A stretch of 64,000 nucleotides of DNA, taken from positions 248,001 to 312,000 of the forward strand of contig JAQGDQ010000224.1 of the NCBI GenBank assembly GCA_030141605.1. The letters run 5' to 3'. Source of the DNA: Tubiluchus corallicola (taxonomy: Eukaryota; Priapulida; Priapulimorpha; Priapulimorphida; Tubiluchidae). The translations under genes were made by a program, and so were the position numbers. Each line of letters starts with the position of its first letter. Positions within the stretch are counted from its first letter, which is position 1. Below the pieces are notes generated by a model that made no database searches, was not told the DNA's origin, and saw only the letters and a program-made list of their open reading frames with translations. Of the stretch, positions 27,896-58,411 are shown piece by piece.

Positions 27896-27980
27896 TTATG
27901 AACCAGTAGATAAAGATTCCAGATACTGTAGTGCATTCTGCAGGGAAATCAGACAATAGCCTTCTTCGCCCATTAAATAC
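27896..27980 (-). CDS. VPS9D1: VPS9D1 exon 14 (C terminus)
   Basis: tttctcacag|GTATTTAATG… to TAA 27896-27898. Encodes [20 protein letters not shown] and ESLSTGS, matching the family C terminus ([20 protein letters not shown]). Confidence 0.96.
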
Positions 27981-30900
27981 CTGTGAGAAAATCATATTTC
28001 ATCATTTTGCAATTGAATTTAAACGAATGCGGGTCATTTTTATTCTGTCTAGACCAGAGCCAGATTTAAGCCAATTAGGCAGATTCGTTCCTGAGCCCTG
28101 CGTCAAGGGGGGGGGGGGCACGCATGGTTAAGCGGAGAACGCTATGGTGAATTAATGATGCTTATGAGTGTCCAGGTTGCACGAAGTTTCTTGATACTGT
28201 GAACGCAGTGAAACTATTCAATCTGTCCTCATTTAAATTGGGTCCCGCGCCAAGAGGGGGGCACGCATGGTTGAGGAGAGGACGCTATGATGAATTAATG
28301 ATGTTATGAGTGTCCAGGTTGCTTGAAGTTTCTTGATACTGTGAACGCAGTGAAACTATTCAATCTGTCCTAGTTTAAATTGGGTCCCGCGCCAAGAGGG
28401 GGGCACGCATGGTTGAGGAGAGGACGCTATGATGAATTAATGTTATGAGTGTCCAGGTTGCATGAAGTTTCTTGATACTGTGAATGCAGTGAAACTATTC
28501 AATCTGTCCTAGTTTAAATTGGGTCCCGCGCCAAGAGGGGGGCACATATGATTGAGGAGAGGACGCTATGATGAATTAATGACGTTATGAGTGTCCAGGT
28601 TGCATGAAATAACACATCACTCTTCAGCCTTTAGGGCAGAGGGCCCCAATAATTTTCTATTTGGGCCCTGCACTTCCTAGGGCCGGGCCTGGTCTAGACA
28701 GTACTTTAATCATTCAACTGTGATTACTGACTTTAATCATTCAACTCTGATTATTGACAAGTTTTCACAAAATCTTTGCCAGCTTACAAACAAAAAACTA
28801 AACAATCGTTACACAATATTTTTGTGAGGGGTGAGCAGAGAATATTCGAGTTCAATTCGAATGAGTTTTTTGAGTTGAAATTCCATTCGAACCTAAATTG
28901 TAGATTCAAATAAGTCAGCAGCACTTCAACTAAATGTGTTGCTTGCAAACCAAAATCGTCCACGAGTCGGTTACATTATGATGCTTCAAAGTAAAATGCA
29001 CCAAAAATTTGGTCAAATGTCAATCTTTCATTTTTTATAAAAACAAATGCTAAATATATTGGACTTTTATATTCTAGCATCAAATTGTCAAGAAAATGTT
29101 TAAAAAATACCAAAAATCTAATTATATAACCCGGTACCCACTTTTCTGGCTAGAAACTAGTACTGAAATTGTAAAACTTGTATTTTCAAACTCAGATAGT
29201 AGCTTGTGAAAGCAGTCATTTTGCTTTGGGTTTTGCCAAGCCCAGATCTTCGTCAGGAAGAGCCATCTACTGCATTTCAACATAACTTCAAAGTGCTCTT
29301 GTAAAGTCTGTAGCAACCAACATTTGTGCGGTTGCTAAGTGCTTTGTAGAAATACAATGGCTGACTTTAACATTGATTTTCTCAAGATTATGTTTTTCAG
29401 TGTGCAGCCTGCACCTCAACTTCAATGTGGATTATCTCAGCTTAGAAATAACATAGAGTGATGAACTTGGTATTAAAATGATCCTCATGAAATGGAGATT
29501 CAGGATGAGTGAATAACTAGAAAAACTTAATTGCTGACTTATGGATTATTTTGCTATGCAAGTTCACATGATTTTTTCATTAAAACATTTCAAACATCAG
29601 CACAATTTAGCTGTGATTTCTGTACACAATTTTTAAACAAATTATTAGTATTTTTACTGCAGAACAAAATCAAGTACTATGCATGATCTTTGTGAGACAA
29701 CTTTTTTGCTAGAGATTTCAAAATCTTTGAAACTGAATTCGGATTAGAGTTCGAAATCCAGAAATTCAATTCGAGTTGAATTCGCTTTCTGATAGAGAAT
29801 GCTGCTCAGCCCTAATTTTTACAGTTAACTGACACACTAATGAACGTACTCATTCGCTTTCTGATAGAGAATGCTGCTCAGCCCTAATTTTTACAGTTAA
29901 CTGACACACTAATGAACGTACTCATCGTGAATGAAATCCTCTACAGCTTGTAATTCCGCAATTAACAGAGGTAACTCACTGCGCACGATTACGTAACTCA
30001 GGATGGGTACAAGATCATCTGCACCACTGTAATGGAAAATAAAACAGAAATGAATTAAATCAACGCAGTTTAGGATGGGCACAAGATCATCTGCACCACT
30101 GTAATGGAAAATAAAACAGACATGAATTAAATCAACGTAGTTTAGAATGGGCATAAGATCGTCTGCAGCACTGTAATGGAAAATAAAACAGAAATGCATT
30201 AAATCAACGTAGTTTAGAATGGGCACAAGATCACCTGCACCACTGTAATGGAAAATAAAACAGAAATGAATTAAATCAACATAGCTTAGGACTGGCACAA
30301 GATCTTCTGCAACACTGTAATGGAAAATAAAACAGAAATGAATTAAATCAACATAGCTTAGGATGGGCACAAGATCGTCTGCACCACTGTAATGAAAAAT
30401 AAAACAGACATGAATTAAATCAACGTAGTTTAGAATGCGCACAAGATCGTCTGCACCACTGTAATGGAAAATAAAACAGACATGAATTAAATCAACGTAG
30501 TTTAGAATGGGCACAAGATCGTCTGCACCACTGTAATGGAAAATAAAACAGACATGAATTAAATCAACGTAGTTCAGGATGGGCACAGGCTTATCGGCAC
30601 CAGAGTAATGAGAAATAAAATAGAAAAGAATTAAATCAACATAGCTTAGGATGGGCACAAGATCGTCTGCACCACTGTAATGAAAAATAAAACAGACATG
30701 AATTAAATCAACGCAGTTTAGGATGGGCACAAGATCGTCTGCACCACTGTAATGGAAAATAAAACAGACATGAATTAAATCAACGTAGTTTAGAATGGGC
30801 ACAAGATCGTCTGCACCACTGTAATGGAAAATAAAACAGACATGAATTAAATCAACGTAGTTCAGGATGGGCACAGGCTTATCGGCACCAGAGTAATGAG

Positions 30901-33900
30901 AAATAAAATAGAAAAGAATTAAATCAACATAGCTTAGGATGGGCACAAGATCGTCTGCACCACTGTAATGAAAAATAAAACAGACATGAATTAAATCAAC
31001 GCAGTTTAGGATGGGCACAAGATCGTCTGCACCACTGTAATGGAAAATAAAACAGACATGAATTAAATCAACGTAGTTTAGAATGGGCACAAGATCGTCT
31101 GCACCACTGTAATGGAAAATAAAACAGACATGAATTAAATCAACGTAGTTCAGGATGGGCACAGGCTTATCGGCACCAGAGTAATGAGAAATAAAATAGA
31201 AAAGAATTAAATCAACATAGCTTAGGATGGGCACAAGATCGTCTGCACCACTGTAATGGAAAATAAAACAGACACGCATTGCTGTAAGAAACACGCTACG
31301 AATGGTACAAAAAGTTAGATACACGATGTTTACACTTCATTTGAACTACCTGAACAGCTGAAATTTTTTGGCAATTTTTAACATCTAAGAGGAAAAAAGG
31401 TAAGCTGGATAAATACTACTAAAACCTTGAGAAAATGCTTACAAAATTTTCGGCTATGAAACTTATATTATATACATACACATATATATATATATATATA
31501 TAATTTTTATTTGCCATTAAAATACATTGATAATCACTGATAAAAACTTTACAAAGATGATCAATCAGTGTTAGTTAATAAAAACTTGCACTGCTGAAGG
31601 CGAATGCATCAGTGCAATCTAAACTACTGTGCAGTAATGGAAAGTAACGACGAATAAAATCAAACATATTTACAACTATGCACAAAAAAATGAAAAAATT
31701 ATGATTTAATTAATACCACCGTGGATGTATAAATTCTGAATTAGTGTGTATGTTGTCATGCTGGTGTGATGGTATTTCATATCTGGTTAATATTAGTGAT
31801 TTTAATTTTGTTTTAAATGCTGATAGGGACTTGATTTGTTTAACCTGTTAATAATGATTTTCAACGAAAACGAAACTGAACCAAAAGTGCAATTATCGGC
31901 AAACGGAAACCAAATTTTCGTATTCGTAACATCCCTGCTGACGCCAAAAACAATGATGAAAAATGACGTGTAAAAACACGCAAGACAAAAACAATGTAAA
32001 ACTGAACTTGCCAAAAACAATGATGAAAAATGACATGTAAAAACACGCAAGACAAAAACAATGTAAAACTGAACTTGCCAAAAACAATGATGAAAAATGA
32101 CGTGTAAAAACACGCAAGACAAAAACAATGTAAAACTGAACTTGGCAAAAACAATGATGAAAAATGACGTGTAAAAACACGCAAGACAAAAACAATGTAA
32201 AACTGAACTTGGCAAAAACACTGATGAAAAATGACGTGTAAAAACACGCAAGACAAAAACAATGTAAAACTGAACTTGGCAAAAACAATGATGAAAAATG
32301 ACGTGTAAAAACACGCAAGACAAAAACAATGTAAAACTGAACTTGCCAAAAACAATGATGAAAAATGACGTGTAAAAACAAGCAAGACAAAAACAATGTA
32401 AAACTGAACTTGCCAAAAACACTGATGAAAAATGACGTGTAAAAACATGCAAGACGAAAACAATGTAAAACTGAACTTGTGTTATTAGTAAAACTTACAT
32501 TGAATTCCCCTGATGCTGTTGTCCTTTTGCACTAAAGTACTCATCAACATTCATGCATATAATCTTGCATACTTGTACTGTGAGATACAAAGAAACAAAT
32601 ACAATAGTTTAAAAGTTGTTAATTATGTTATAAAGACAGACAGAATGCCCATCACGACTGTCTGTCCATCTGTGCATTGCCTGCCTTCGTTTGCAGTGGT
32701 CACAATGGCTTTTTAATTTATATAGTTTGGCATTTTAACAAAACCAAATTTAGAATATTCACTTGAATTTAAAAGAAAACAAGACCCAATCTTAAACTGT
32801 AAGTCAAAATAATCTACTCCTTAAAATATTGAAAGGAAACGTACTATTTTTTCAAGAATGACTTACGTGAAAGAATTATTGCCACACAAACACAATTTCG
32901 CATTCGTGCCACTAGTTCTTCGCTGTTACATGCATTTCGCCATTCGCTAGTTAGATGGGCACTAGCACCTGAATTTTGGAAATGCATTGCACAAAAAACA
33001 AGCGATGTACCTCTCAATTTAGATGTGTTTTGTCGACTCCCAGTTTAGAGGTGTCTTGTTCACTCTCAATCTAGAGGTGTTAGTTTGTGACGTAGTGCAC
33101 AGCTTCGACAGCTCTTGCATAAGCACAGCAGTAAATTATAAACTTGAATTTTTATCTTAAAACTTGTCTAGTTTTAGTTTAACACAATGAATCTCTTACA
33201 GTAGCAGTGTACTTCAATTTTCGTTTTCACAAACACGTGCAACACAATATTTTTACTGTTGAGATTTATGTTAGTTTGTGATGTCATCAATAATTGGGCT
33301 CGCTCCCCGTTATCATTTAATTAACAGAAACGCTTTTGCAGTATTAATCGTGTTAAAATTATACTTTATATCAGACTTGAAAATGGGGGGGGGGGTGTAT
33401 GAAAAATCATCCTGTCCTCTTTTAATTACCACAGGTGAAAAGTTCACTAATAGACAAAGATTTGTTGTCAGAATTTTAGAAATACTTACCAATGATTTCT
33501 AATTTGCTGAGAGGACAAATACAATTGATAAGCTTTCTCAGTTCAAAGATGGCAGCACTGTACGGTATCTCCTCACTATCTAATAAACTCAACTTCTTCT
33601 TCACGGTTAGGTGATAAGGCAATGCACCTTGGTACAGCGTCATGGTTTTTGCCAAATTTATTTCCCTCGATTTGTAGACCAACCTGTGCAAGAAAATAGT
33701 TAGTAACTTTTATTTCAACTCAAAAGATTTAGTGTCTACTCACTAATAGCTACTGCAGTTATTTGCAGGAGCGTATCAAGACTCCCTAGGCTGATACTTC
33801 TGTCCTGCCAATCTTTATTGCAAATTTATGGTTGCTTATATAATAAGCAATTTAAACAATTACTTGTGGTGTATTAGAAATATTATTAAACTAGTTTCTA

Positions 33901-36900
33901 TGTGGTTATTATTAATTACATGTATTTGCACAGCGCTTACATTCAAGCAAGCTGCGAAGCTTGTTGTGTAATACCTTAGACCTGTTCATTATGTGGTACT
34001 TATAGAAAAGCTGGATGCAGTAACTGCTTGTGGTGTGTTACAAAATGTGCCCTTTACATGAATATAAAAGTATACACATCTCTATTGTGAATTTATATGG
34101 TTATTTATATAATAAGCAAATTAAACAATTACTTGTGGTGCATTAGAAATATTATTAAACTAGTTTCTACGTGGTTATTATTAATTACATGTATTTGCAT
34201 AGCACTTATATTCAAGCAGGCTGCGATGCCTATTGTGAATTTATGGTTGTTTGCTATAGTAATTTCACATGACTGCAAATAATGCAATTACAAGTTTCAC
34301 TGTTGTGCCTGATTAACTTGCTGGCTATTGAGAAATTCACTTTTCACACAATATTCATTAATTTTATTACAATGAGAATCTGCGGGTAAAAACAACCAGC
34401 GGATCTATTATTAAGAGGGGTTCTTATTGTAACGATCAATGCACCAATGCTGGTTAAATCATGTAAATTAAACATTTTATTCATAATTCTACTATTAATT
34501 TCTTTCTCTTTGTTTGAAACATCTATCTTTCTTACCAATGTCTGGCTAGACTTGCTAGCGATCTCTCCTCTGCCAAGCTCTGCATGGAGCGACCTTGAGA
34601 CAATTTCATGTAGTATTGATGTGGTTGCTATAGCAACAGGTTAGAGACAAAATTACTTGGCATAAAGTTTAAACGCCGCTGTCACTTGATGCAAACGGCT
34701 AGAATTTAGTACATGGTCAGTCGGGAAGCAAAAACATTATAATAATTGCACTGTTTACGTTACTAATACATTTTTAGAACAAAATAAAGCAATATGTACC
34801 ATTTTAATGCTTCAAATTTGCGAAAAAAAAGTTGTTGATAAAATAAAAATGGCCGTGAGCAAGGTAAAAAATTCGTCGTTAAACGAAACTGTGCGTCATT
34901 AAGTGAGGAAAAGGTGTCAACTAATAGTACTACTTTCACATCGTGAGCAAGGTAAAAAATTCGTCGTTAAACGAAACTGTGCGTCATTAAGTGAGGAAAA
35001 GGTGTCAACTAATAGTACTACTTTCACATCGTGAGCAAGGTAAAAAATTCGTCGTTAAACGAAACTGTGCGTCATTAAGTGAGGAAAAGATGTCAACTAA
35101 TAGTAGTACTTTCACATTTTTGCTTCAAGATCATTTTTGGGTTTTGTGCGTTTTCTGTAAATTTAAGTAAATGAAGTATTTTCATGGTGTACCGGCTGAT
35201 TTTCCTGAAGCAGTTATTTTATTTAACTATTGAACTAAACTAAATGATTAAGTTGAACATTTTACAAATAATCAGGTGAGTATTAACCAAATAGGCTAAT
35301 CAAAATCAAAATGTGTATACTTTTATATTCATGTAAAGAGCACATTTTGTAACACACCACAGGCAGTTACTGACCGCAGCTCTTATATAAGTACCAGATA
35401 ACGAACAGGTGTAAGGTATTACACAACAAGCATCGCAGCCTGCTTGAATATAAGTGCTATGCAAATACATGTAATTAATAATAACCATGTAAAAACTAGT
35501 TTAATACTGTTTCTAATACACCACAAGTAATTGTTGACTTTGCTTATTATATAAACAGCCATAAATTCACAATAGAGATGTGTATACTTTATACTCCCTC
35601 TCCCTCTCTCTCTTGCCGCACGCGCGCCGTTTGCCAGTATTGACAAGTATTAAGGACTGGTCTTGAGAATAAAGCAGTTTTTCTTTCAATTGTTCTTTTC
35701 TTTAACAACTGTATAACTCCATATTTTCTCTTCGACCGGCATTCTAGCAGTTCAAAAATTTTCAGGGCGCCCCGAGGGGGCCTTACACGCCCGACTTCCC
35801 CGGGCCTCGCTTAGACTGAAATAGGCCCTGATAATCGTAAATAAAAATGTGCAACGCCGCACACTTGACAAATACAATTATCCGAGATCTCTGTCTAAAT
35901 TAAAACACGAACCTGATTACCTGAACAACGGTAACAAATACGGCCACAGTCTCTCCAGAAAAGGTTGTTCTATTGAAGCGTGTACTTGATCGCGACCAAT
36001 CGGTGTATCTAACTGCTCATACGCTAAAATAAACAATTCATACAAGCGATCCATGTAGAGTCGAACGTCATTAATGATATTCTTTGAATGTCGCATCAAA
36101 GCTTCTTCTTCCAGGGAGCAGAGACCGTGACGCGTATCCTGGAAACGAAAATAAATGTAATTCGCACCAGCAAAGCTTGATCCTTCTACAGTAAGTCCTC
36201 GCTTAACGACGCTAATGCGTTCCAGCAAAACACGGCGTTAAGTGAAACGTCGTTAAACGAAACTGTGCGTCATTAAGTGAGGAAAAGGTGTCAACTGTTC
36301 AGAGTGGTTAAGCGTCCCGGGACTTCACTGTATGTATAATAAAAATAATTAACAGTTCAAACTAATTTTAATGTTAATAATTAAATTAACAGTAGCTAAG
36401 TACACAGAAGAAAGCTATTATAACAGCTAATGTCCATAAATGTCTGTACTTTCCGTTCATAAGTTTTTTTGTATATTTGTTAGCCTACAATACTTACTTT
36501 TTAAAAATTATTCAAAATTTTTTTAAAATTTTCTTAATTTTTTTTGATACATTTGCTAAGTTTAAGTGATACGTTTAGGTAAAAACACAACATACTGAGT
36601 GACTTGTTCTTTCCTTTAAATTTCGTACCTTGACCTCCTCACTGCTGGGTGATTCCTCAGCTGCCGTATCACCTGTAAGTTGCCTGACTAGCCTACTGCC
36701 TTTCTCTAAAGCCTTTTCCGCATCATCTATAGATGAAGCTACCGCATCTGCAAGATCACTACCGTCATCACCGGTCCCAGCATCACCAGGCACATGCAAA
36801 TGATCACCAGACTCTAGTAGCTCCGTGTTTTGATTGGTAGGTGGACTGGAATCATCGTCAGTGAGCCGTCGATCGTCATGAACATCGTCGTCACCGTCGT

Positions 36901-39900
36901 CATCATCATCATCATCGTCATCGTCGCTGGATGAGTTATGTCGATGAAGTGCGCTCCCTGGTTCTATGCCACAAAACGGCACCCGAACGTAAAAGCATTC
37001 ATTCAATCTGTCCACAACTAACGGTTTTAATTTGTCGTATATGACATACTGGTATTTCCTAAGAAGCTGGCACAGTGGATGGCCATCCGTACTGTAACGT
37101 AAAAAATTCCTTATTACATGTGTAACTGCACTAGCCGTACGTTGGGATTGAGGTGGGTTGCTACATTGCTACTTGAGGTGGGATTGAGGTGGGTTGCTAC
37201 GCCTTCAAGGGGTGAAAAACTATTTTAACGCAGAAACACAGTGAAGATCTGTAATCAGATTACCCAAACGTCTTTACGGCTACAGAACAGGTGAAGACAT
37301 ATGATGGCATTCGCAAACATAGCTCCGTACAAACGTCCCGTAATTACTAACATATTCCCTGTATTTACTACATAAATTCACTGTATAACTAATGTATTCA
37401 CCGTATTTACTACACAAATTCATCATATTACTAAAGTATTCAATGTATTTGCTGCATAAATTCACTGTATTACTAACGTATTCACCGTATTTACTACACA
37501 AATTCATCATATTACTAAAGTATTCAATGTATTTGCTGCATAAATTCACTGTATTACTAACGTATTCACCTTATTTACTACATAAATTCACTATATTACT
37601 AATGTATTCACTGTATTACTAACCTATTCACCGTATTTACTACATAAATTCACTATATTACTAATGTATTCACCTTATTTACTACATAAATTCACTATAT
37701 TACTAATGTATTCAACGTATTTACTACATAAATTCACTATATTACTAATGTATTCAACGTATTTACTACATAAATTCACTATATTACTAATGTATTCAAC
37801 GTATTTACTACATAAATTCACTATATTACTAATGTATTCACCTTATTTACTACATAAATTCACTATATTGCTAATGTATTCAACGTATTTACTACATAAA
37901 TTCACTATATTACTAATGTATTCACCTTATTTACTACATAAATTCACTATATTACTAATGTATTCACCTTATTTACTACATAAATTCACTATATTACTAA
38001 TGTATTCACCGTATTTACTACATAAATTCACTATATTACTAATGTATTCACCGTATTTACTACATAAATTCACTATATTACTAATGTATTCACCGTATTT
38101 ACTACATAAATTACTATATTACTAATGTATTCACCGTATTTACTACATAAATTCACTATATTACTAATGTATTCAACTTATTTACTACATAAATTCACTA
38201 TATTACTAATGTATTCACCGTATTTACTACATATTCACTATATTACTAATGTATTCACCGTATTTACTACATAAATTCACTATATTACTAATGTATTCAC
38301 CTTATTTACTACATAAATTCACTATATTACTAATGTATTCACCGTATTTACTACATAAATTCACTATATTACTAATGTATTCACCTTATTTACTACATAA
38401 ATTCACTATATTACTAATGTATTCACCCAAACGTGAAATTGTGTGTGTGGTAATAATTCTTTCACGCAAGTCATTTTTGAAAAAATAGTTTGTTTTCTTT
38501 CAATATTTCAAAGTGTAAATTGTTTTGACCTGCAGTTTAAGATTGGGTTCAATTTTGTTTTAAATAGCATCTTGACTTCTTTTACTGTCATGACTGGACA
38601 TTGTACTTCTTTTACTGTCATGACTGTACAATGTACTTCTTTTACTGCCATGACTGTACAATGTACTTCTTTTACTGCCATGACTGTTCATTGTACTTCT
38701 TTTACTGTCATGACTGTACATTGTACTTCTTTTACTGTCATGACTGGACATTGTACTTCTTTTACTGTCATGACTGTACATTGTACTTCTTTTACTGTCA
38801 TGACTGTACAATGTACTTCTTTTACTGCCATGACTGTTCATTGTACTTCTTTTACTGTCATGACTGTACATTGTACTTCTTTTACTGTCATGACTGTACA
38901 TTGTACTTCTTTTACTGCCATGACTGTTCATTGTACTTCTTTTACTGTCATGACTGTACATTGTACTTCTTTTACTGTCATGACTGTACATTGTACTTCT
39001 TTTACTGTCATGACTGTACATTGTACTTCTTTTACTGTCATGACTGTACATTGTACTTCTTTTACTGTCATGACTGTACATTGTACTTCTTTTACTGTCA
39101 TGACTGTACATTGTACTTCTTTTACTGTCATGACTGTACATTGTACTTCTTTTACTGTCATGACTGTACATTGTACTTCTTTTACTGTCATGACTGTACA
39201 TTGTACTTCTTTTACTGTCATGACTGTACATTGTACTTCTTTTACTGTCATGACTGTACATTGTACTTCTTTTACTGTCATGACTGTACATTGTACTTCT
39301 TTTACTGTCATGACTGGACATTGTACTTCTTTTACTGCCATGACTGTATATTGTACTTCTTTTACTGTCGTGACTGTACATTGTACTTCTTTTACTGTTA
39401 TGACTGTACATTGTACTTCTTTTACTGTCATGACTGGACATTGTACTTCTTTTACTGTCATGACTGGACATTGTACTTCTTTTACTGTCATGACTGTACA
39501 TTGTACTTCTTTTACTGTCATGACTGTACATTGTACTTCTTTTACTGTTATGACTGTACATTGTACTTCTTTTACTGTCATGACTGGACATTGTACTTCT
39601 TTTACTGTCATGACTGTACATTGTACTTCTTTTACTGTCATGACTGTACATTGTACTTCTTTTACTGTCGTGACTGTACATTGTACTTCTTTTACTGTCG
39701 TGACTGTACATAGTACTTCTTTTACTGTCATGACTGTACATTGTACTTCTTTTACTGTCATGACTGGACATTGTACTTCTTTTACTGTCATGACTGTACA
39801 TTGTACTTCTTTTACTGTCGTGACTGTACATTGTACTTCTTTTACTGTCATGACTGTACATTGTACTTCTTTTACTGTCGTGACTGTACATTGTACTTCT

Positions 39901-42900
39901 TTTACTGTCATGACTGGACATTGTACTTCTTTTACTGTCGTGACTGTACATTGTACTTCTTTTACTGTCATGACTGGACATTGTACTTCTTTTACTGTCG
40001 TGACTGTACATTGTACTTCTTTTACTGTCATGACTGTACATTGTACTTCTTTTACTGTCATGACTGTACATTGTACTTCTTTTACTGTCATGACTGTACA
40101 TTGTACTTCTTTTACTGTCGTGACTGTACATTGTACTTCTTTTACTGTCATGACTGGACATTGTACTTCTTTTACTGTCATGACTGGACATTGGACTTAT
40201 GTGGACAAATGAGTAAAGAAATCAGAAGTCAATATGTGAGTTTAAACTTTTAGTATCAGTTACCTACATAGATAAATACTCTAAGCTCATCATCTTACCT
40301 GACTATGAGCTTTATAAGATGGTCTATAAACACCGTATCTTGCTGACTCTCTTTTAACCTTGCCCTCCAATCGAGAAGCCACGCCTGTAAGAGAAACCAC
40401 ACCTGTAAGAGAAGCCACGCCTGTAAGAGAAGCCACGCCTGTAAGAGAAACCACACCTGTAAGAGAAGCCACACCTGTAAGAGAAGCCACACCTGTAAGA
40501 GAAGCCACACCTGTAAGAGAAACCACGCCTGTAAGAGAAACCACACCTGTAAGAGAAGCCACACCTGTAAGAGAAGCCACACCTGTAAGAGAAGCCACGC
40601 CTGTAAGAGAAACCACACCTGTAAGAGAAGCCACACCCGTAAGAGAAGCCACGCCTGTAAGAGAAACCACGAATTCTGTAGCAAGTACCTCATTCAAACC
40701 ATTTTAAAACATTTTTCATCTTTTATAGTTAAAACATCACAACTTTATTAAAACTTTTACTTTAACGTAGTTAAAAATCATATCAAACATTTCGACAGAG
40801 CTACCGCTATCATCATCAATAGTACATTTTTACAAACATACAACCTGTTTACATAGGCAGAAGTTACAGTATAAAACATTATGCACTAATTATCTATTTA
40901 AGAGAAGCAAAATAGGTCATGAATTACAGACCAAAAGAAAAGAAATTGATACAATAAATTATGCATAATGCATGCTTTTGTAAGTACATAATTAGTGCAT
41001 AATCTACTGTATCAATTTCTTTTTTTCAGGTCTACTTAATCACTATCTATTTGTCTTTTGTAAATACATAATTAGTGCATAATCTACTGTATCAATTTCT
41101 TTTCTACTGGTCTGCTTAATCATTACCTATTTGACTTCTGATAATACATAATGTTCTATACTGTAGGTTCTGCCTTTGTAAACTGGTTGTATGTTTGTAA
41201 GATTTACTATTGATGATGACAGCGGTAGTTCTCCTTAAACGCTTGACATGATTTTTTTAACTATGTAAATTAAAAGTTTAAATAAACGTGAAGTGCTTAA
41301 CTAGACATATCCAAATATATTAACAACCAACCTGATCTTGTTCATACTCTAATATAGCTAAATAGATTTGCTTCTTCTCATCTTCTTGCCTAGTACCAGT
41401 ACCGCCACCAAATTTCCTAAAAGACCAAGAACCTATTACAAAAATGTGCAAACAATACAGAATTACAGAAATTGTTGCGCTTTGTTTCTCTCGTACGGCT
41501 CGTAGAGAAACCCAGAAAACACTTCATCAAATTAAACTAGTTTATTAAGCGAGAATTCTACAACATAAAAGTATGAAGGAACACGAAATGATTACAGTAA
41601 ACGTGAAAATCTGGAAAACGTTTAAGTGTATCTGAAATTGCAAGTATACAAGAGAATGTGTAAGTGACGTCTCTGTGAATCTGTGTGTGTCAGCGGCTTG
41701 CTTCACCTTATATAGGGTGCCAGGGAACATTCTAGACGTTTCCTTCTAGAACATTCTACAAGGTAAGACGATTGTTCTAATGGAACATTCTACAATGTTC
41801 TATTTAATTCTAATAGATGCCAGCGATCTCCACAATAGAAATTTAGTTTTTACATATAATCACAGTCTGAAAGTACCAGTACCACCACCAAACAATACAG
41901 AACTAGAGAAATTTAGTTTGTACATATAATCACATGTAATAATATATATAATCACATATAATCACAGTTTGAAATCACCTTGCAGCAGCATCTTTGAGCT
42001 TTTCTCTTCTTTCTTCTCGTTTTCTTAATAGTTCCTCGTGTTTACTCTTAGCAATGGCTACATTTTCTAGCAGCCTTCGTTGTAATGAAACACCCTGTAG
42101 AATGAAATTGCAAACCAATTTTAAAATTATTTAGCGGGTCCCCACTCGCTACCTTCAACCTCTCCCAGAGGGGACCGGGTCCCCACTCGCTACCTTCAAC
42201 CTCTCCCAGAGGGGACCGGGTCCCCACTCGCTATCTTCAACATCTCCTTGTTTAACTGAATACCAGCCAAACTTAATGGAAAACACCTAATTGACTCAAA
42301 AATGTCTGGAACGGGGCACTCCTATTCAAATGTACATAAAAACCATCGGTAATTGACTCACATAACTGTGCACAATTGACTCAAATAACACCGAGTAATT
42401 GACTCAATATTTTCTCTTGGCGTACTTAAAATAAGACACTTGTGTGTGACCAAAGAACTTTTACTGCTTTCATGTCATTTTTACATTGATGTTGTGCACT
42501 ATAATATACGTAGAAACAGTCATGTTAAGTACAGCTTTGTTTGTAAGCAGGTACAGTATCACAAGTACTAATATGTTAGCTTAGCAGTTTTGCTTTGAAT
42601 CTGTCACCCACTTGTCCACTGCAATTAACCTCGTTGTTTCTGGAAGCTAAACATTTAATCACTTGACCAGCGGTTTGCTTTTGAAGTTCCTGCTGCTTTT
42701 CACAGGGGAAACAAGGTCATCACCAACTGCAGCTCAAGCACTAGGTGACTACGTGTTTTGAGTGAATATGTACAGTATACAGTAACAGATTTTCAAAGAA
42801 ATGTTGCAGACCAAAATCAATGCATCTTTAATGCTCAGGTCAAGTGTTCTCCAAGGTCAAACCTCAAGTGCATGCTTAATCTTTCTGAACGGAAATACTC

Positions 42901-44933
42901 AGTAGCTAAGAAAAAGTTCTTTTTTCAGTTATGGAAAGACATTGTTTACAATGTAAATACAGTAAGTCTTTGCTTAATAACTCCCTGTTTAGAGATGTTT
43001 CGCTTGACATTTGACTCTTTTAGTCACCTAACGATTCACTTTAATGATTTTTTTACTTTGTGTAAAGTCAATTTTTATTTTGTCAGCAACATTTTACCTA
43101 ATTTCCTGCATTAAAATGGCATATATTGAGTTATTTAGTTCTAAAAACGCACTAAAAATGTAAATAGTGCAATTATTATGCTTTTGCTTCCCGAATCTTG
43201 ATTTGATCAACAAAATTTTTGCCTAATTTGATGCATTACGAGAGTACAACTTGCATTATAAAATGTATGTAAAATGTTTGTGTATATATGATACAGTAAG
43301 TCCTCGCTTAATGACGCTCCGTTTAGCGACGTTTCGTTTTAATGACATTTTACGCTTTTTTCAGTTAATGACGCCCGTTTCACTTTAACCATGATTTTTT
43401 TACTTTGCTTAAAGTCAATTTTTATTTCATTAGCAACATTGTTACTTAATTTGATGCATTAAAACATCACACATTGCATTATTCTGTTCTAAAAATGTAC
43501 TAATAATGTAAACAGTGCAATTATTATACCCGTTTTTCTTCTTCCCTTCTGCTGACTAAAATAAAATGCCAGCCGTTTATGTCACCTAAAACCTACCAGC
43601 AAACTTTGCACATGCAACCTGTTGCTATAGCAACCAGACTAAGTATCTAGATAAGATCCCCATGGTTGTCCAGCGCTTGGCTTTGACTCTGCAGTGTTTA
43701 TTGTTCACACCGCTGTCTAGGCTTAAACGTTAACGAAAGAGAAGCTGCTATAGTTAAGAATGGTAAGTAAGATGTATGGGTGGTTTCAGGCAAGCAGAGA
43801 GAAATTAATCAGTAGAAATATGAATGAAACTCATAAAATGTTTAAGTTACATATTTAATCAGCCTTGATTTTTGCCTCTGGAACGTATCTCAATTCACTT
43901 ACACTAGTTTCCATGGAAGTCTTGGATTCATGTAACGATGCTTCGCTTAAAAGAAAACCGGATGATTGTGTCAACATTAGTTCAGAATCAAAAATGCTCT
44001 AAAATATTGAAAACTACAACAGCTTTTTTGAATCAAAGCTTAGAATAAATAATAATTACCTCGGATAGTTAAATTTCGTTAAACTTTCAAAGCTACGCGC
44101 GGCTCAGTGAATCTACTAAGATTAGCAATGGCGCCTTTTTGTCGCGTGCGCATGGCCGACAAATAGAAGGCGGTACTGCGATAACCATGATCATGAACTG
44201 CAGTGTTAGTTTCTAACGTGATATGACGTAGGGCCCATTTTCGTGACATCATGCATTTAAGCAGTATTGTAACACCTATGCAAATGTGCTTGAAGCGCAA
44301 GGGAAGACGCCTGCCATCGCGCAAACTGTGGTTAGTTTCTGACGTATGCAATAGCTGTGTTCAGTTGCCGTTAATTAACTTTCTAAACTAATTATTCAAA
44401 TATAAGAAGCAACTGCTAACTTTTATATTTAGGCAAGAAAACATATGTTTTGGATAGTAAATTAAAATGAGATTGAGTCTAAACAATCATCCACTTTTCC
44501 TTTAATGTCACATTTTGCTGGAACGCATTAGCATCGTCAAACGAGGATTTACAGGAAAGAATTTAAACCGTAAATTAAAACTGTAAAGCGAAATAAATTA
44601 ATTTAGTAATTAGCGACAGTTCTGTTAAACGCATTCAAATCTTAATAAAAGAAAAATCGATACCAGTTGATATTTGGTTGTCGCTCCATGAGTCCTTGCT
44701 ATACGAGCTCGATAAGCTGCTATTAATCGTTGGTTTTCTCTGGATGCAAGTTCAAGCGGGTCGTATTCTGTTCTGAGAAAGAAATTCATAAAAAATAACA
44801 ATAAATCAAAGACGTAAGAATACAAGTAACAAACTGCAATAAGAAATGGGTATTTACTGATATACAATCTGGGTAAACAAATATATTCATTTTTCATTTT
44901 TATTCTCCCCAAAGCATTTGTCTAGAGCCTTAC

Positions 44934-44990
<57 letters not shown>

Positions 44991-47900
44991 CTTTATTATT
45001 ACGACTACGGCAAAATCACGTTGAAAACACCGGTTCTCGTCTGATTACCGAAGATAAGCAACATATAGCCCGGTTAGTACTCGGATGGGTGACCACCTAG
45101 GAATACCAGGTGCTGTAGGCTTGCGGGATGCCCACACTGTATCTCGACACTAGGCGGAGGAGCTGCACAAGCAGCCAACGGCTAGAGGGCGGAGGAGGTC
45201 AAGTGACCCAACGGCCATGTGTAGAGGAGTAAACCTTCAAAATCAGGAGTGGAGCTCCGAAGGCGGACCAGTGCAGCATGCTCACTGACTCCGGCAGTTC
45301 CTGCAGCCAACCTGGTGCCAAACGTATCGTTCCGCTTTCTTTGGACTACACCAGCGAGGAAGAGAGGGGGTTCCTGTTGTCTGGGCAACTCAGGATCTCC
45401 ATACACCTTGCCCAGGCATGTGCCCTGGAGAGGCCATTCCAGTGGTTCAAGGATCGGACTGCTCAGCCACAGTCGACGCTGCAGCTCCAGCAATGTGATC
45501 AATAACTGACTCTCTTGGCGCACACTCCATTGTCTTCCAAGACAGAAGGATGCCAACCAATAATAATCTTTATTTAAAGTCGGCTTTTGGGTCAAAGAGC
45601 TATTATCGCCGACTGTAAATAACAACCTACAACTACATAACAGAGACTATTATTACCGCTTGGTTCCCAACCTGGTGTACTAGTACCCCTAGTCTGTCGA
45701 AAACTGAACAGCGATTCAAAAAGTAACTAGTACCCCCTGGAAGTACTACTGAACACCACAAGGCGTGCACGAGAAGCCTCTTAGACAAAATTAAAAAATT
45801 AGCGGGTGATTCAGACAACTGAAGCGCCGCCTGGAAACAACATCAGTAACCGAATTTTGGTGCAGTCCGCAGATACGCGAGGCCTATCTGGTTCCATACG
45901 TCCACCCAACTACGACGTTTGTGATTGGCTACCTGTGAAGCAGGCTGTTCAAAGATGGTGACAATGAAGACAAAAGCCCGAAACCGTGTTGACATCCGCA
46001 GAGATATGAGAGTCAGTCTGTGGAAAACTGAACCGCGATTCATAAAGTTAGTTTCTGCTATGCAACAGCAGCCAACTCATTGGGCTTTCATTTACTGAGC
46101 TTGATCATTTATGTTCACAAATAAAAACAACCACTGGTACATTTTAACTAACTGCACCGTTATGTTAACAACAAGCGTTCATTTATTACACCCTGAGAGC
46201 CTGAACACACGAACTGTGAGTCGCAAAAGTCAGTGTTGCCCCCCCCCCACACACACAAGGCATTTGGTTGAGTTTTTATCTGTCAGTTGTATATAAGACT
46301 GCTTAATTACCCTAATTGCACACGTTAACAATGAGTCAGCCTAAGTAGTACCACACTGAGTACTATTAATGCGGCGTAGGTATTAGGAAAATAAAATAAT
46401 CTATAATATCCTTTTTGTATTCTGTTAAACTTAACTATCTGTTAATTCGTTTCTTGGAAATAGTGGCCTAAAATAGGTTTTTAAAAGTTAATAAACAGTT
46501 AAATTTGAATAATTAACCTCTTTGTAAAGAAATCATAGTTCTTTTGGAAGTCACCCCTACAGCAAAAATGGTTTAGTCTTCCATTCCTACTAGTTCTTAA
46601 CCTGGCACGGTGCCAGCAGTTGACCTGGCACGATGCCAGCAGTTGACCTGGCACGGTGCCAGCAGTTGACCTGGCACGGTGCCAGCAGTTGATAGTCAGT
46701 TAATTGAACTACACAACAGAGTGGCATTCAAATTTTAAATTCTCTAACAATGGATATCGCATTACAAATGTCTGCATTTTCATTATCGGAGCCAGGTAGA
46801 AACATTAAGCTCGGGCAATTAACAATGCGGGTAATTTCTCAGGTACCCGGGAACACTAATGCTTACCTAGGACTAGCTGGCATTAATGACAAACTTCTAG
46901 ACTCAGCAGAAACTGGAGAAGATTGGGATGATGAGTGCGGAGTGGATGCTGCAGGTAAACTATGATAATTGGTAGAAACGTGTAATTTTGACTGAGACGA
47001 GTCGTCTGCAGTTACTGCAAGACTGGAAGGTTTCTGAATAACTGTATCTTTATCACCGCCTGAAAAATACAAAGTTAGGAATGAATGAACAATCAAAAAG
47101 TGGCCCGGAAAAGGGATGATTATTATAAATAAAATTAAATCATTTGTTTATAATCCTTGAAAAATTGTTTGGTAAAAGAAATGATTTGAATTAACTTCAC
47201 TGTGATTTCCAGAAACGATCAAATACGGTCGGAACCGCAGATCTAGGTGCGTCCTCAGAGAGAGATTGTTAGGCCTGCGTAAAAAGTGAGGAAAACAATG
47301 GGCGTCATGTTCTAATACAAATTCTATGCTCTGCTGTTGGGCAAACAATGGGCGTCATGTTCTAATACAAATTCTATGCTCTGCCATTGGGCAAACAATG
47401 GGCACCATGTTCTAATACAATTTCTATGCTCTGATGTTGGGCAAACAATGGGCGCCATGTTCTAACACAAATTCTATGCTCTGCTGTTTGGCAAACAATG
47501 GGCACCATGTTCTAATACAAATTCTATGCTCTGCTGTTGGGCAAACAATGGGCGTCATGTTCTAACACAAATTCTATGCTCTGCTCTGCTGTTGTGCAAA
47601 CAATGGGCACCATGTTCTAACACAAATTCTATGCTCTGCTGTTGGGCAAACAATGGGCACCATGTTCTAACACAAATTCTATGCTCTGCTGTTGGGCAAA
47701 CAATGGGCACCATGTTCTAACACAAATTCTATGCTCTGCTCTGCTGTTGGGCAAACAATGGGCATCATGTTCTAACACAAATTCTATGCTCTGCAGTTGG
47801 GCAAACCATGGCCATGTTGCTGGACCAAATAGCATTTGATTGTTACGCAAAAGCTGCCCTCGAGCGACACAGTTTTGAAACATTGTTTTATACGCAAGCT

Positions 47901-50900
47901 AGCAATCTCTCTACACACTTCATCTAAATCTACGGTCAAAACAAAATTTTTTACTATTTTTCCTCAAGATTATTCTATGCAAATGAACTACTGAAGAGAT
48001 AATGTTTAATATAATCACCATTTTCCTTCAAAATCTCTTGTGTCCGTTCAACGCACTGCAAGCAAAGCTTAAAGAACTTGTCGTCAGCTCCACCTAGTAG
48101 TAAAAATGTTTAATATAATCACCATTTTCCTTTAAAATCTCTTGAGTCCGTTCAACACACTGCAAGCAAAGCTTAAAGAACTTGCCGTCAGCTCCACCTA
48201 GTAGTAAAAATGTACACTGATATGTTTGTTAGGTATGAAATAAGGGGTTTTTACTTAAGCCTGTGTGTTTGCCGATTAAAGGTATGTGGTGATACTTTGT
48301 TAAATAGTCAAACACACAACACAAATCGCAAATCGCATTTAGCCCCGCCCAACTTGAAGATGTAACACACATTCTCACAAACTCCCCCCGATACAAGTGC
48401 TTACAACACATTAACAAACTGAAAAGATGGAAAAAATTGGTACTAGTAAGTTTGCCAAAGGTAAATTTGGTCTAGCAATTTTGGTAAGAGGAATTTTTGG
48501 TGCAGCAAAATTTTAGCACAGCACCCGGAAAATTGGATACAGAGAAAATCTTCTACTGGAAAAACTTAATACAGTACTGGCAAGCTTTTGTCACGCATTT
48601 TTAGTACAAGGAAATCTGGTTCAAGGTAATAGGAATTTTCACAGTTTCATTGCGCAGTTGCTGTAGGTCAAAGGTTAAGTGTGCCACAGCAACGAGCCTT
48701 AACTACAACTGTCACGTGACGTGTAGGTAAAGCAAAGCTGTCTGTCGCATCAGCTCAGTAGCTTCAGTTGTTTTACATAGACTTTACCTAATTATGCATT
48801 AGTCTGTGCATAGAGTGATTTACTAGCAGGATTTTGCTCGGGAACAAAAAAATGAACTAGGTAACTGTTAAAACTGTAAGTATTACAATGACTTGGGCTA
48901 CAAGGGGTTATCAATTGTAGACAAATGTGTTATCTAGTACACTTAACCTTTGGTCTTTTCACGATCATCATCATTCGCTGGATCTGCAAGACTTATTACA
49001 GAGGATCAGAGAATTCTCTATAACAATGTATAAACTGCTCCAAATCTCGATGTTGCCTCCAGAAATACAGCACTCGTGTACGGCATCATTGAAACAGTGA
49101 TAATAATGTTAGTTAGACAGTAAAATTGGTGCAATGATGATAAAAACAATTTTTCACACCGATACAATAAGGGAATATTCATCACAACGACATGACATTA
49201 TCACTAGTGTGGTAGTTGGAATTGTACATTGTAGTCAGGTGCTGCCATCTATGTGCTAATCTTGTTACATTCTACAAGCTGACTTACCTTCAGTCTAATT
49301 GCATGGTCCAGTGACTACATACACACTGGTCCTCTCCCTATCAAAAATTAATGGTTGTTGTGAAGCCTGTGCAACTCTGCATAGTTCAAGTTCTACACCT
49401 GTATACTGGCTGTGAAACAGGTTTTACTGACTGTTTTTGCTTTTCTAGTTTTTGCTCAATGTTCAGTGCAGCAGTTTTCTGTAGTTCAATAAACACTTTT
49501 CTGTTGTGTGCAGTGCAAATATTTATTATAGATTTTTGGTTCCTATTCACACTTCTCTGTGTCTAAACTCATTCATAACTAAGTGACTGAACAACAACTT
49601 CAAAAATGACTTTCACAACTAACATCCTTACAAGCCAGTGAACTTAACTTAATGTACATTTATCTAAGATTAATACAAACCTTTACTCCTTGCATCTGCC
49701 AGAAGATGTTGTATTACATACGTCACGCATTGTAAATAGGTTACGGAAGCTGCCTAGATAAGAGAATTAGAAAATATTTCAGAAAGTACCACTTTCTTAG
49801 TATAATTCTAATCACAAGAAATACAAATACCAAAACACAATGAACCAATACAAAATACAAATTATAATAATAATAATAAGAAGAATTTTTTTATTTATCT
49901 TGCAACACACGCAGAGTTATAATGCAGTAAGGATAACAAAGTTTGGTGTCATTTATAATTATAGTGGTTCTTAGTAATTGTATCACGTATTACTCGAAAT
50001 TTCAAGGTCAGGGCATTTTTACAAGCTTGGTTTCTTACAATACAAATCATTTAGGTGGGTAGTTAATAATTTTTTTTCAAAATTTTCTTATTACATATCT
50101 TGCAGTTTGCCACCTCTTGAATTATTGAAAACTTTTTGCTTATTTTAATGTATTAATTTTTTATTTGTGTTGATGTGAAATAAACAATCTATATATATAT
50201 ATATAATAATCTTTATTTGCCATTAAAAACATTGATAATCACTGATAAAAACTTTACAGAGATAATCAATCAGTGTTAGTTAATAAAAACTTACACTGCT
50301 GAAGGCAAATGCGTCAGTGCAATCTAAACTACTGTGCAGTAATGACGAATAAAATCAAACATATTTACAACTATACACAAAAAAATATAAAAAAAACTAT
50401 GATTTAATTAATATGGCCGTGGGTATATGAATTCTGAATTAGTGTGTATGTTGTCGTACTGGTGTGATGGTATTTCATATCTGGTTAATATTGGTGATTT
50501 TAATTTTGTTTTAAATGCTGATAGGGACTTGATTTGTTTAACCTGTAATGGTAGAGAATTCCAAAGTAGAATTGCTTGTTTGATTACAGAGTTCGTTCCA
50601 TAGTGGGTATTTGTCCTAATTTGTTTTAGATTGCTTGTTCTGGAATTAACGATAGGATTTGGAAAAAGGTAAATCTGTTATTCTGGAATGGTTTGCTGAT
50701 GTTGTTAATGTATTTAAATATAAAAAGCAGAGTAAAATATTCTTTGTGTGCTTCAATGATTGGGAATTTTAATGTTTTTCTCAGGTTAGTTGTTGAAGCT
50801 TTGAATTTTTGTCTACCTGCCTTGTGTTTGTATGAGTACCCAGCTATCAATCTCAATGCATAGTTTTGAAGGAGATTTAATTTTAAGTAATTTTCTCTTT

Positions 50901-53900
50901 TGGTTTTTTGAAGTAGCGTACATCCATATAAGAAGTGTGGTAGAACTAAAGTTTTATATATTAGTGTTTTAGTTTCCTTTGTTAGTTGCCCTTTAACTTG
51001 TCGGAGATATGATGTGCTAGATGCCATTTTTGTGTATATGTTATTAAAGTGATCACCCCATGAAAGATTATTGTCTACCTGTATGCCCAGGAATTTAACA
51101 TTGTTAGTTTGTTTGATTACAGCATTATCTATTGTCAAAGTGGTTGATGATGCATCATTAGTATTTAATGAGGGTGACAGTATCATGAATTCTGTTTTGT
51201 CATTATTCATTTTTAGCTTGTAATGACTAAATGCCATATTTATATTTTTTATATCTTCTTCTAAATAATTTTTTGCAGTTTGGACATTTTCATGGGCTAT
51301 GTAGATTGTAGTGTCATCAGTGTATTGCGTTATTTGTGAGTGTTTTAATACACTGGATATGTTGTTTATATATAGGCAAAATAATAACGGACCTAGTAGT
51401 GTTCCTTGCGGTATACCTCTGTTTAACGTGGCCCAGTCAGAAAAGTTGGTTGTATCTAACTTTACTCGTTGTTGTCTATCTTTGAGATAATTTTGTATCA
51501 GTTTTAACGATATCGAATCTAATCCTATTTGTTTTAAATTATCGTAAAGTAGTTCGTGATTAATGCTATCGAAAGCTTTACTTAAATCCAAAAATGCTGC
51601 TAAAATGTATTGCTTGTTGTCTAAACTATGTCTCCAATTTTCTGTTGTGTGTATTAGGGCGTCAATGGTTGAATGGTGTTTACGGAAGCCAAACTGATGT
51701 TTTGATAAAAGTTCATGTTTATTTACATATGAATTTATCTGATCATAAATTACCCTTTCCCAAACTTTGCCGAAACAATGGATTACAGAAATTGGGCGAT
51801 AATTCATGGGATCACATTTTGGATCTTTTTTATGGATTGGAGTCACGTTTGCCATTTTACATACCGTTGGAAATTCGCCTCTCATAATTATCTGATTAGC
51901 AATGTAAGTCATATGCGGGGCTATTACAGATGCGCTATCTTTTAGAATTTTGATAGGAATATCTGATGGTCCACTCCCTTTGTTGGAACTTAGGTTATTT
52001 AATATGTCGTTAATTTCTCCTACTGTGACGCTTTTGAATGAGAATACTGTGTTAGACGATTTGTTTTTTAATTTATTAATTATATTATTGTTAATATGAG
52101 AAGCCACTCCCTTAAAATTTCCAAGATTCAGGAATATTGCATTTAGCGCATTGGCAATATCTTTGGGTTTTGTAATAACAGTGTTGTTGATCTTAATTTC
52201 GTCAACACGCGTTAGTTTGTTACGGCATTTATTTATTACATTGTTAATAATTTTCCATTTTTCTTTGGTATTTGTTGCGTTTTTACATTGTTGTTGTATA
52301 TGTTTATTTTTCAAGCATTTATTAAGATTATTAAATTGATTTCTCTTTTTTTATAATTGTTATGATTGTTTTTAGTTTTGTTCTTTTCCCATATATTATA
52401 CATTCTGTTTTTCGCTATTCTTAGTTTGTCAAGTTCAGGTGTTGTCCAGGTACTTTCGTTATTGAGTTTGCTTTGTTGTGGGATTTGCTTTACGTTTTTA
52501 TATGGTGCATGTACATTAAGGCAATATTCGACATTATATGTCAGAATATTAACTTGTGTATCTATTTTATCAGTCATATATATGGAGGTCCAGTTCATTT
52601 TTGCTAAGTCGATTAAGTATGAATGTTTGTTGTATTGGGCGTAGTCTCTCATTAAATGCCAGACTGAATTTTGGTTATTATTATGCTGTGGGGTCATTTT
52701 ATCTACTAATATTATGAAATGATGATCTGAATAATCACACGGGAAAGTATCATATGCTACGAAATTATTGTTACTATTCGAAATGAAATGGTCGATTACT
52801 GTGGCTGATGTTTTAGAAATTCGAGTAGGTTTATTGTTGTTAAGTATGTGGACATTATATTGTTTTAAAAGCTCTGTGTATGTTTTGTATGCCAGTGTGT
52901 TTGTAGCTAAAATATCAAGGTTGAAATCGCCCATTATAAGTACTTTTTTATTTTCGAAAACACTGCGTTCTAGTTCTTCACTAAAGTATTTGAAAAATGT
53001 TTTGTGTTTGAGATTGGGTGGTCTATATATGGTTCCTATTACATAGTTCTCAATGCTGCACCAAACAGATTCAATTTTGCCAGTTCTGATGCCTTTCATT
53101 TCTTGTGGTCTCAGGTGTGAAGGTATATACATCGCAACCCCTCCACCTTTCTTATTTTTACATCTATCTCTTCTTATTAATGTGTGATTAGGTAATTCTA
53201 TAGTGTTGCTAAGTATTTGTTTATGTAGCCAAGTTTCTGTTATGCCTACAATCAGATTTTCGGTGGCGTGAATTGTATCTTTCAGCAGCCAGTGTTTTTT
53301 GACGAGACTTTGAATATTTATATTTAGAAATTTGATGTTCTTTTTATAAGTAATCATGAATTTTTTTAGCTTATCACTGGTATTATTATTGTTGGTGTTA
53401 TTATTATTATTATTTGGCAAAATGGGTCCAGGGTTAGTTTCGATACCACCAAGTATAAGTAGTAAACGAATTATGGTTAAAATGTAAGCCAGTTCAGAAC
53501 ATGAGTATAGAGTGCTTTCAAATTTAGATGAAATCTGTAATTTTTCCAATTTTTTTAGAGCTACGTATTTTAGATTGACATGACGCATTTGTCTTATAGC
53601 ACTGAGGTACACAACTTTTAAGATGGATACAAATCTTTTTAAAATAAATTGCATAGAGTGTCTTATTCTATCGCTATTTACAGGAAAAGCAATGAAAAAG
53701 TTGTTTAAATTACCTTTAGTCATTACATTACAAATTACTGTTACGTAGATCATTTTCAGTTTTAGTATGGAGAGTAATGTACGTAGTATAACTAAGACGT
53801 AAGCATAGTTACAATAAAAGAACTTAACTGTTTGATATTTGGCGTTAAATATACAAAGGCTCCCATGATCACAAATAAATTTGGTAATTTTATGATAAGA

Positions 53901-58340: not shown

Positions 58341-58411
58341 TTGTTTCTACACTGACCCTTTTACTTTCAAAAATTTTGGAATATGCAGCTAATTTGATTT
58401 CAAGCCTGTTT

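What the first reader, a model, noticed from the sequence alone, without database searches (positions are those of the whole stretch)
29922..31265. A satellite made of splice acceptors: 18 in-frame copies of the VPS9D1 exon 13 start
Seen: a 72-bp unit carrying a pyrimidine tract, CAG and the first ~11 codons of exon 13 is repeated 18 times; 15 copies keep the AG. Every unit is open in the exon frame and 72 is a multiple of three. Inference: splicing from exon 12 to any intact acceptor would give a protein with n x 24 extra residues placed at GADDLVPIL, the entry of the VPS9 catalytic helices. Conservation of frame across all 18 units, including the three that lost the AG, is notable. The most 3' copy gives the conserved protein, so the cell must pick the last of 15 near-identical acceptors or tolerate a ladder of isoforms.
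Basis: partly seen in the sequence, partly recalled or inferred. Interest (0 to 1): 0.92.

Follow-up and report, generated by a model that had tools for sequence, protein, structure and literature searches.

The report
Eighteen-fold splice-acceptor repeat in VPS9D1
An animal gene (a VPS9D1 orthologue, likely from a priapulid worm) carries 17 extra in-frame copies of its exon-13 splice acceptor and first dozen codons (14 with an intact AG), and 15 extra copies of its exon-8 acceptor (14 intact), yet is predicted to be spliced mostly to the last copy, as in the "mirage" repeats known from lancelets.

Summary
In front of exon 13 of a complete 14-exon VPS9D1 orthologue (minus strand), a 72-bp unit stands in 17 tandem copies plus the true exon start: 18 acceptors, 15 with AG, all open in the exon frame. 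Nine of the 17 upstream acceptors equal the true one over 23 nt. The same gene holds a second array of this kind that the finding does not mention: exon 8's acceptor, 16 units of 18 bp, also in frame. Exon 3 and the exon-13 donor are also tandemly duplicated.

The kind is known: "mirages", minisatellites across intron/exon boundaries, described in amphioxus. This host is not amphioxus; VPS9D1 groups it with Priapulus. A close relative's transcript-like protein joins exon 12 directly to [12 protein letters not shown]. Frame conservation is not notable: no stop is expected with probability 0.42, and the coding half of the units changes as if unselected. Arrays hit splice sites no more often than chance in a gene that is 25% tandem repeat. 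Use of the last acceptor, and any 72-nt isoform ladder, remain untested. Three contigs hold the locus but seem to share one assembly path, so the copy number is not independently confirmed.

The parts
30027..31250 (-). 17 tandem 72-bp units, each = 36 nt matching the exon-13 start + 36 nt of intron-end type (branch-point-like motif, pyrimidine tract, then AG, or TC in 3); order ABCDABCDABCEFGHIJ from 5' to 3' on the gene strand
31251..31274 (-). first (most 5') acceptor of the array, AG intact
29922..30026 (-). VPS9D1 exon 13 proper (105 nt), [12 protein letters not shown]...FIHD; predicted true acceptor at 30027/30026
29780..29925 (-). 72-bp x 2 exactly repeated block that duplicates the exon-13 donor (ATGA|GTACGT); use of the distal copy would read HDEYVH-stop
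40385..40672 (-). second acceptor array: 16 units of 18 bp (consensus GTGTGGCTTCTCTTACAG), in frame mostly as (V/A)W(L/F)LLQ; 15 of 16 unit ends have AG, the last of them being the true exon-8 acceptor
40299..40384 (-). VPS9D1 exon 8 (86 nt), [28 protein letters not shown]
48001..48213 (-). 104-bp x 2 duplication holding the whole of exon 3 (copies 48197-48123 and 48093-48019) with its splice sites; 29 nt lie between the copies
32499..32577 (-). VPS9D1 exon 12, donor AAT|gtaagt, leaves phase 2 so that any array acceptor stays in frame
31943..32479 (-). 67-bp x 8 array in intron 12, beginning 19 nt after the exon-12 donor
27896..56616 (-). whole VPS9D1 gene model: 14 exons, 659 codons plus stop, 82% identical to P0001 over its length

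Best explanation
The array is a mirage-type minisatellite: 17 tandem copies of a 72-bp unit that joins an intron end to the first 36 nt of exon 13 of a VPS9D1 orthologue, likely expanded by slippage or unequal exchange and predicted to be removed as intron through use of the last acceptor. Shown: unit make-up, copy number in the assembly, AG retention, open frame, identical A, B and C units inside the array with unique units next to the exon, and a second array of the same kind at exon 8. Inferred: the last acceptor wins because exon definition from the exon-13 donor favours the nearest upstream acceptor (a 105-nt exon against 177 to 1,329 nt), since the 23-nt acceptor sequence itself cannot tell nine of the copies from the true one. 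Slips to the nearest one or two upstream copies (+24 or +48 residues) would be the commonest by-products and, being in frame, would not be cleared by nonsense-mediated decay. Period and open frame are taken as accidents of the founding unit, copied by descent. The confidence covers array class plus predominant use of the last acceptor.
For: Units and AG counts. A, B and C occur three times each without a difference, D twice, while E and the five 3'-most units F-J are each unique; amphioxus mirages are described with concerted evolution inside and unhomogenised cluster edges (PMC3087553, passages). Exon model complete and in phase. The relative's protein P0001, 671 aa on a 2,254-nt contig and so without room for these introns, joins NSI to [12 protein letters not shown] and DQ to AWLLHW, no repeat units at either site; none of 19 aligned homologues has a second GADD copy. 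Coding half of units without sign of selection: 6 synonymous of 18 distinct changes, 5.4 expected. No protein with the repeat found (limits given above). No donor above score 2.3 inside the array except one chance GCAG|GTGATC at 30234 (6.7; true exon-13 donor 2.9), so upstream copies can scarcely form separate exons. Arrays at splice sites are at chance level: 5 of 26 boundaries, rotation mean 6.48.
Against: P0001 is from another species (82% identical), whose genome may lack the arrays altogether, so it does not prove how this one splices. All 14 upstream AG acceptors score as high as or higher than the true one on a crude matrix of recalled human frequencies (6.4-7.1 against 6.4), and the exon-13 donor is weak (2.9), which does not favour strict exon definition. 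At exon 8 the possible exons are only 86-356 nt long and the most 5' array acceptor scores best (5.6 against 2.4), so exon-8 isoforms are harder to exclude. The intron-derived half of the 72-bp unit is less variable than the coding half, which plain neutrality of the whole unit does not predict. No RNA from this species was available.
Confidence: 0.75

Rival explanations
1. Ladder of functional isoforms: the cell uses several acceptors, making VPS9D1 proteins with n x 24 extra residues ([24 protein letters not shown]) in the loop before the helix that bears the conserved Asp, tuning exchange activity.
For: All units in frame; 14 upstream AG acceptors score no worse than the true one; the insertion point is a loop (601-611) just before helix 612-626 in the AF2 model of P0001, so an insertion may be tolerated; the unit repeats the residue that is D in AtVps9a and N in the D185N entry 2efh.
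Against: Coding half changes without codon constraint; the relative's protein has no units; the unit includes a hydrophobic stretch of intron type; no protein with units found.
Confidence: 0.12
2. Assembly expansion: the true array is shorter or absent and the assembler inflated it.
For: Three contigs repeat the same end sequence, so the assembly is redundant here; identical 288-bp blocks are of the sort that assemblers miscount.
Against: 10 distinct unit sequences in a structured order are hard to make by miscounting; a second array at exon 8 and many other arrays in the window.
Confidence: 0.06
3. Array kept as splice signal: the extra acceptors act together (for example as branch-point and U2AF sites) and are kept for recruiting the splicing machinery, not for protein.
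For: The intron-derived half is less variable than the exon-derived half: 8 of 37 against 16 of 35 columns, p = 0.045; without types A and B 3 of 37 against 11 of 35, p = 0.017.
Against: The split was chosen after seeing the data, there are few independent events, and copies share history, so columns are not independent; a low-complexity tract may also vary less by its make-up.
Confidence: 0.07

Closest known systems
Amphioxus 'mirages' (minisatellite-like repeats across intron/exon boundaries: Adh3, globins BflGb6 and BflGb9, PGBD5)
   Same: Tandem repeats of an intron end plus exon start, unit lengths from 10 to 160 bp, splice signals kept in many but not all units, homogenised inside and not at the cluster edges, acceptor and donor boundaries both hit; RT-PCR in globins and Adh3 data suggest regular splicing is not disturbed, for PGBD5 the authors infer it (PMC3087553 and PMC3902484, passages only).
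   Different: Host groups with Priapulus, not cephalochordates; 17 units against 3 and 6 in the two BflGb6 haplotypes; two acceptor arrays in one gene, both with in-frame units; use in RNA not tested here.
[quoted passage not shown]
   Same: A minisatellite that repeats a working splice site of the host gene.
   Different: Donors, not acceptors. Seen only as a title in a reference list; the gene name and details are recalled, the paper is not held.
Variable internal tandem repeats at human exon-intron boundaries in segmental duplications
   Same: Minisatellites at exon-intron boundaries that alter gene structure and may form introns (PMC2812944, passages only).
   Different: Those passages describe repeats within exons that turn into introns; here the acceptor itself is the repeated piece.
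Tandem exon duplication / mutually exclusive exons (recalled)
   Same: Exon 3 here is duplicated whole with both splice sites, with a 29-nt gap likely too short to be an intron.
   Different: Exon-13 and exon-8 units carry an acceptor and exon start only, with no good donor bar one chance site.

Membership tests
mirage (boundary-spanning minisatellite) | tandem repeats that span an intron/exon boundary | tested here: met
   72-bp x 17 at exon 13, 18-bp x 16 at exon 8
mirage (boundary-spanning minisatellite) | many but not all units keep splice signals | tested here: met
   AG at 15 of 18 (exon 13) and 15 of 16 (exon 8)
mirage (boundary-spanning minisatellite) | homogenised inside, unhomogenised units at the cluster edges | tested here: inconclusive
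   ABCDABCDABC then E-J unique: met at the exon-side edge, not at the 5' edge, where the first unit is an ordinary type A
mirage (boundary-spanning minisatellite) | regular splicing not disturbed | tested here: inconclusive
   only a relative's protein on an intronless contig, no RNA of this species
mirage (boundary-spanning minisatellite) | length differs between haplotypes or somatically | not testable with these tools
   one sequence path only
VPS9D1 orthologue | VPS9 domain and full-length match to VPS9D1 proteins | tested here: met
   PF02204 1.9e-09 on the exon-13 frame; 659-codon model 82% identical to P0001; grouped with P0001 and Priapulus VPS9D1-like at 100/99
mutually exclusive / tandem exon array (exon 13) | each unit is a whole exon with acceptor and donor | tested here: not met
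   no donor above score 2.3 in the units except one at 30234
donor-site minisatellite (IFI6 type) | units carry donor sites | tested here: not met
   units carry acceptors

The most novel reading that the evidence does not exclude
A gene whose exchange protein is length-tuned by two in-frame acceptor minisatellites: each cell makes a ladder of isoforms with extra copies of the Asp-bearing GADDLVPIL segment (exon 13, +24 residues each) and of VWLLLQ (exon 8, +6 each), and allele length sets the ladder.
Probability: 0.1. Interest if true: 0.85.

Novelty: new member of a known kind. Interest (0 to 1): 0.48.

Why it matters
It places a structure known from lancelets in what is likely an ecdysozoan, at larger copy number than the example I could read, and twice in one gene. 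It offers a natural test of how a spliceosome chooses among more than a dozen near-identical acceptors when their sequence cannot decide. It also shows how in-frame repeat units would let mis-splicing escape decay. If such arrays prove frequent in this genome they would be a route to new exons and introns.

Tried and rejected
Rejected: frame conservation as a sign of selection. As a control, of 18 arrays in the window with period 15 or more and 3 or more copies, 10 have a period divisible by three (one-sided binomial p = 0.043 against one third) and 6 of those 10 are open in at least one frame; both counts include the exon-13 and exon-8 arrays, so 8 and 4 without them. Rejected: special targeting of splice sites. 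Rejected: three independent genomic copies. Two further Pfam matches to the array's frame (Cas1_AcylT, DUF4144) lie below their cut-offs and are taken as spurious. The splice matrices use human base frequencies from memory and only rank sites.

Led nowhere: sampling other multi-exon genes of this genome for such arrays. Searches of the own genome for PF00069, PF00225, PF00102 and protein P0001 never got an answer. Ten arbitrarily chosen 10-kb stretches (three of them half N) hold 3.7% tandem repeat of period 7 or more, 4.4% of their 85,000 bases that are not N, against 16.5% of the window; of the other ten stretches six did not exist and four served to compare contigs. One search's comparison of the contig starts found no match. 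Literature: eight searches, judged from titles and the starts of abstracts, showed me no report of acceptor arrays outside cephalochordates; only named Priapulus. The listed papers were not read except PMC3087553, PMC3902484, PMC2812944 and PMC2572611, in passages. The library lacks most subscription papers; the Adh3 paper (PMC117041) and the donor-minisatellite paper (PMC306954) are not held.
Full report
What is there. On the minus strand, upstream of VPS9D1 exon 13, 17 tandem units of exactly 72 bp run from 31250 to 30027 and end at the true exon start at 30026. Each unit starts with 36 nt that match the exon start (TGGTGCAGAYGATCTTGTGCCCATYCTAARCTAYGT in most) and ends with 36 nt of intron type (consensus TGATTTAATTCATGTCTGTTTTATTTTCCATTACAG). 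AG is kept at 15 of 18 acceptors. Nine of the 17 upstream acceptors are identical to the true one from -20 to +3, five differ at one base, and three, without AG, at five. There are 10 distinct unit sequences in the order ABCDABCDABCEFGHIJ, with a 288-bp higher-order repeat in the 5' part. The three AG-less acceptors are the ends of the three type-A units, and type B just behind carries a diverged exon start (GADKP for GADDL): it looks like one dead acceptor that was copied with its block.

The gene. Tblastn with P0001 and splice-site fitting gave a complete 14-exon model from 56616 to 27896, 659 codons and a stop, all 13 introns GT-AG, all phases consistent, 82% identical to P0001 over its length. 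The model starts MIMSKQ; P0001 starts at the second of these Met. PF02204 (VPS9) matches the exon-13 frame. In the own genome PF02204 was found at this locus (three contigs) and at one other place, C1730. A tree of 24 proteins, the window's included, puts the window's protein with P0001 (100/100) and then Priapulus caudatus (100/99) (the bootstrap had not fully settled and 8 of 21 inner branches are open). The host is therefore likely a priapulid or near kin; this rests on one gene.

Splicing. Exon 12 ends in phase 2 at AAT|gtaagt, so any array acceptor gives [12 protein letters not shown] in frame. P0001 is a 671-aa protein on a 2,254-nt contig of source 'lgn', hence without these introns, and read by me as a transcript contig. 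It has [24 protein letters not shown]: no extra unit. None of the 19 aligned homologues has a second copy there. A search with the 475-codon frame of the array found P0001 only (7,997 candidates sharing most words were scored). All AG acceptors score 6.4-7.1 on a crude matrix, and each of the 18 has a yTNAy motif 25-35 nt upstream, so sequence near the acceptor cannot single out the last copy. What differs is the distance to the exon-13 donor: 105 nt for the last copy, 177, 249 and up to 1,329 nt for the others. I infer that exon definition selects the last copy. Against this, the donor is weak (2.9).

Is the frame selected? Only 7 of 216 single-base changes of the consensus create a stop; with 26 distinct changes the chance of none is 0.42. 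A shuffled intron half stays open in 54% of trials. In the exon-derived 35 columns 6 of 18 distinct changes are synonymous, 5.4 expected. So the extra units show no sign of selection as protein. The intron-derived half is less variable (8 of 37 against 16 of 35 columns, p = 0.045; without types A and B 3 of 37 against 11 of 35, p = 0.017). The split was made after seeing the data and the units are not independent, so I take it as a hint only, but it is not what full neutrality predicts.

More of the same in this gene. Exon 8 has its own acceptor array: 16 units of 18 bp, in which the exon start GYGTGGYTTCTC (15 of 16 units; the first differs) doubles as the pyrimidine tract of the next acceptor; 15 of 16 unit ends have AG. 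It too is in frame with exon 8, whose frame is fixed by P0001 (DQ-AWLLHW). Use of upstream copies would add 6 residues each. Here the candidate exons are 86-356 nt and the most 5' array acceptor scores best, so a ladder is easier to imagine than at exon 13. Exon 3 is duplicated whole with 104-bp spacing; the 29 nt between the copies are likely too short for an intron, and P0001 has the GADDK of the 3' copy, not the GADGK of the 5' copy. The exon-13 donor is duplicated exactly (72 bp x 2, 29780-29925); the distal donor would bring a stop after HDEYVH.

Background rate. Tandem arrays (period 7 or more) cover 25.0% of the gene span. Five of 26 splice boundaries lie inside one: exon 3 acceptor and donor, exon 8 acceptor, exon 13 acceptor and donor. 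Rotating the boundaries gives a mean of 6.48, P(at least 5) = 0.83, P(at most 5) = 0.30. So arrays at splice sites are what this density of arrays gives. Coding bases are hit less: 169 of 1,977, 8.5% (whose exon 3 and 11 ends were 3 bases short in all). Ten arbitrarily chosen 10-kb stretches had 3.7% (4.4% without N), so this gene is richer in arrays than the little I could sample. The other VPS9-domain gene has a 60-bp x 15 array that begins 19 nt behind a likely exon end GEAGYYFTNL|gtaaga (locus L018), the same distance as the 67-bp array behind the exon-12 donor here.

Where an insertion would fall. In an AF2 model of P0001 (mean pLDDT 77, 19 sequences) the exon 12/13 junction is the end of a loop (601-611) before helix 612-626. 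The five Foldseek matches with E up to 0.001 are Rabex-5 (2ot3, 1txu) and VPS9a (2efh, 2efc, 4g01). In the PDB sequence comparison the first D of GADD aligns with the D of AtVps9a that reads N in 2efh, the D185N entry; that this is the catalytic Asp finger is recalled. Each in-frame unit would add another such segment.

Known precedent. Amphioxus globin, Adh3 and PGBD5 genes have 'mirages', minisatellite-like repeats over intron/exon boundaries, with many AG/GT signals kept; for globins and Adh3 the authors report that regular splicing seems undisturbed, for PGBD5 it is inferred (PMC3087553, PMC3902484; passages). Human minisatellites at exon-intron boundaries are described too (PMC2812944, passages), and a donor-site minisatellite in an interferon-induced transcript (title only). 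In the listings of eight searches I saw no such array reported for a priapulid; only asked for Priapulus by name. So: a new member of a known kind, remarkable for copy number, two arrays in one gene and the likely phylum.

Limits. No RNA and no reads of this species; copy number rests on what seems one assembly path. Genome-wide frequency could not be sampled because the search machine did not answer.

Noticed in passing
50629-55976 (minus): Retroelement in intron 1 of the gene: reverse transcriptase (PF00078), endonuclease (PF14529/PF03372) and a third frame with a GDSL-esterase match below the cut-off; LINE-like.
   Followed up: no
58393-59946 (plus) and 3555-4841 (minus): Another reverse-transcriptase frame, and a frame with a Ty3-capsid-like match just below the family cut-off.
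   Followed up: no
L018:1778-2689: Near the other VPS9-domain match of this genome (C1730) a 60-bp x 15.2 array begins 19 nt after a likely donor, the same distance as the 67-bp x 8 array after the exon-12 donor in the window.
   Followed up: partly
38575-40198 and 37606-38427: Intron 8 carries a 30-bp x 54 array and a 42-bp x 20 array, 96% matches each.
   Followed up: no
G000 contigs C44, C2105, C2125: Three contigs hold the locus at the same distance from their ends and share an identical last 1 kb, so the assembly seems to print one path several times.
   Followed up: partly
36883-36926: A 9-bp x 4.9 repeat inside exon 9 codes a run of Asp; P0001 has a longer acidic stretch there.
   Followed up: no
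window, 18 arrays: Ten of 18 longer arrays have a period divisible by three, a slight excess over one third (p = 0.043), though most lie outside exons.
   Followed up: no
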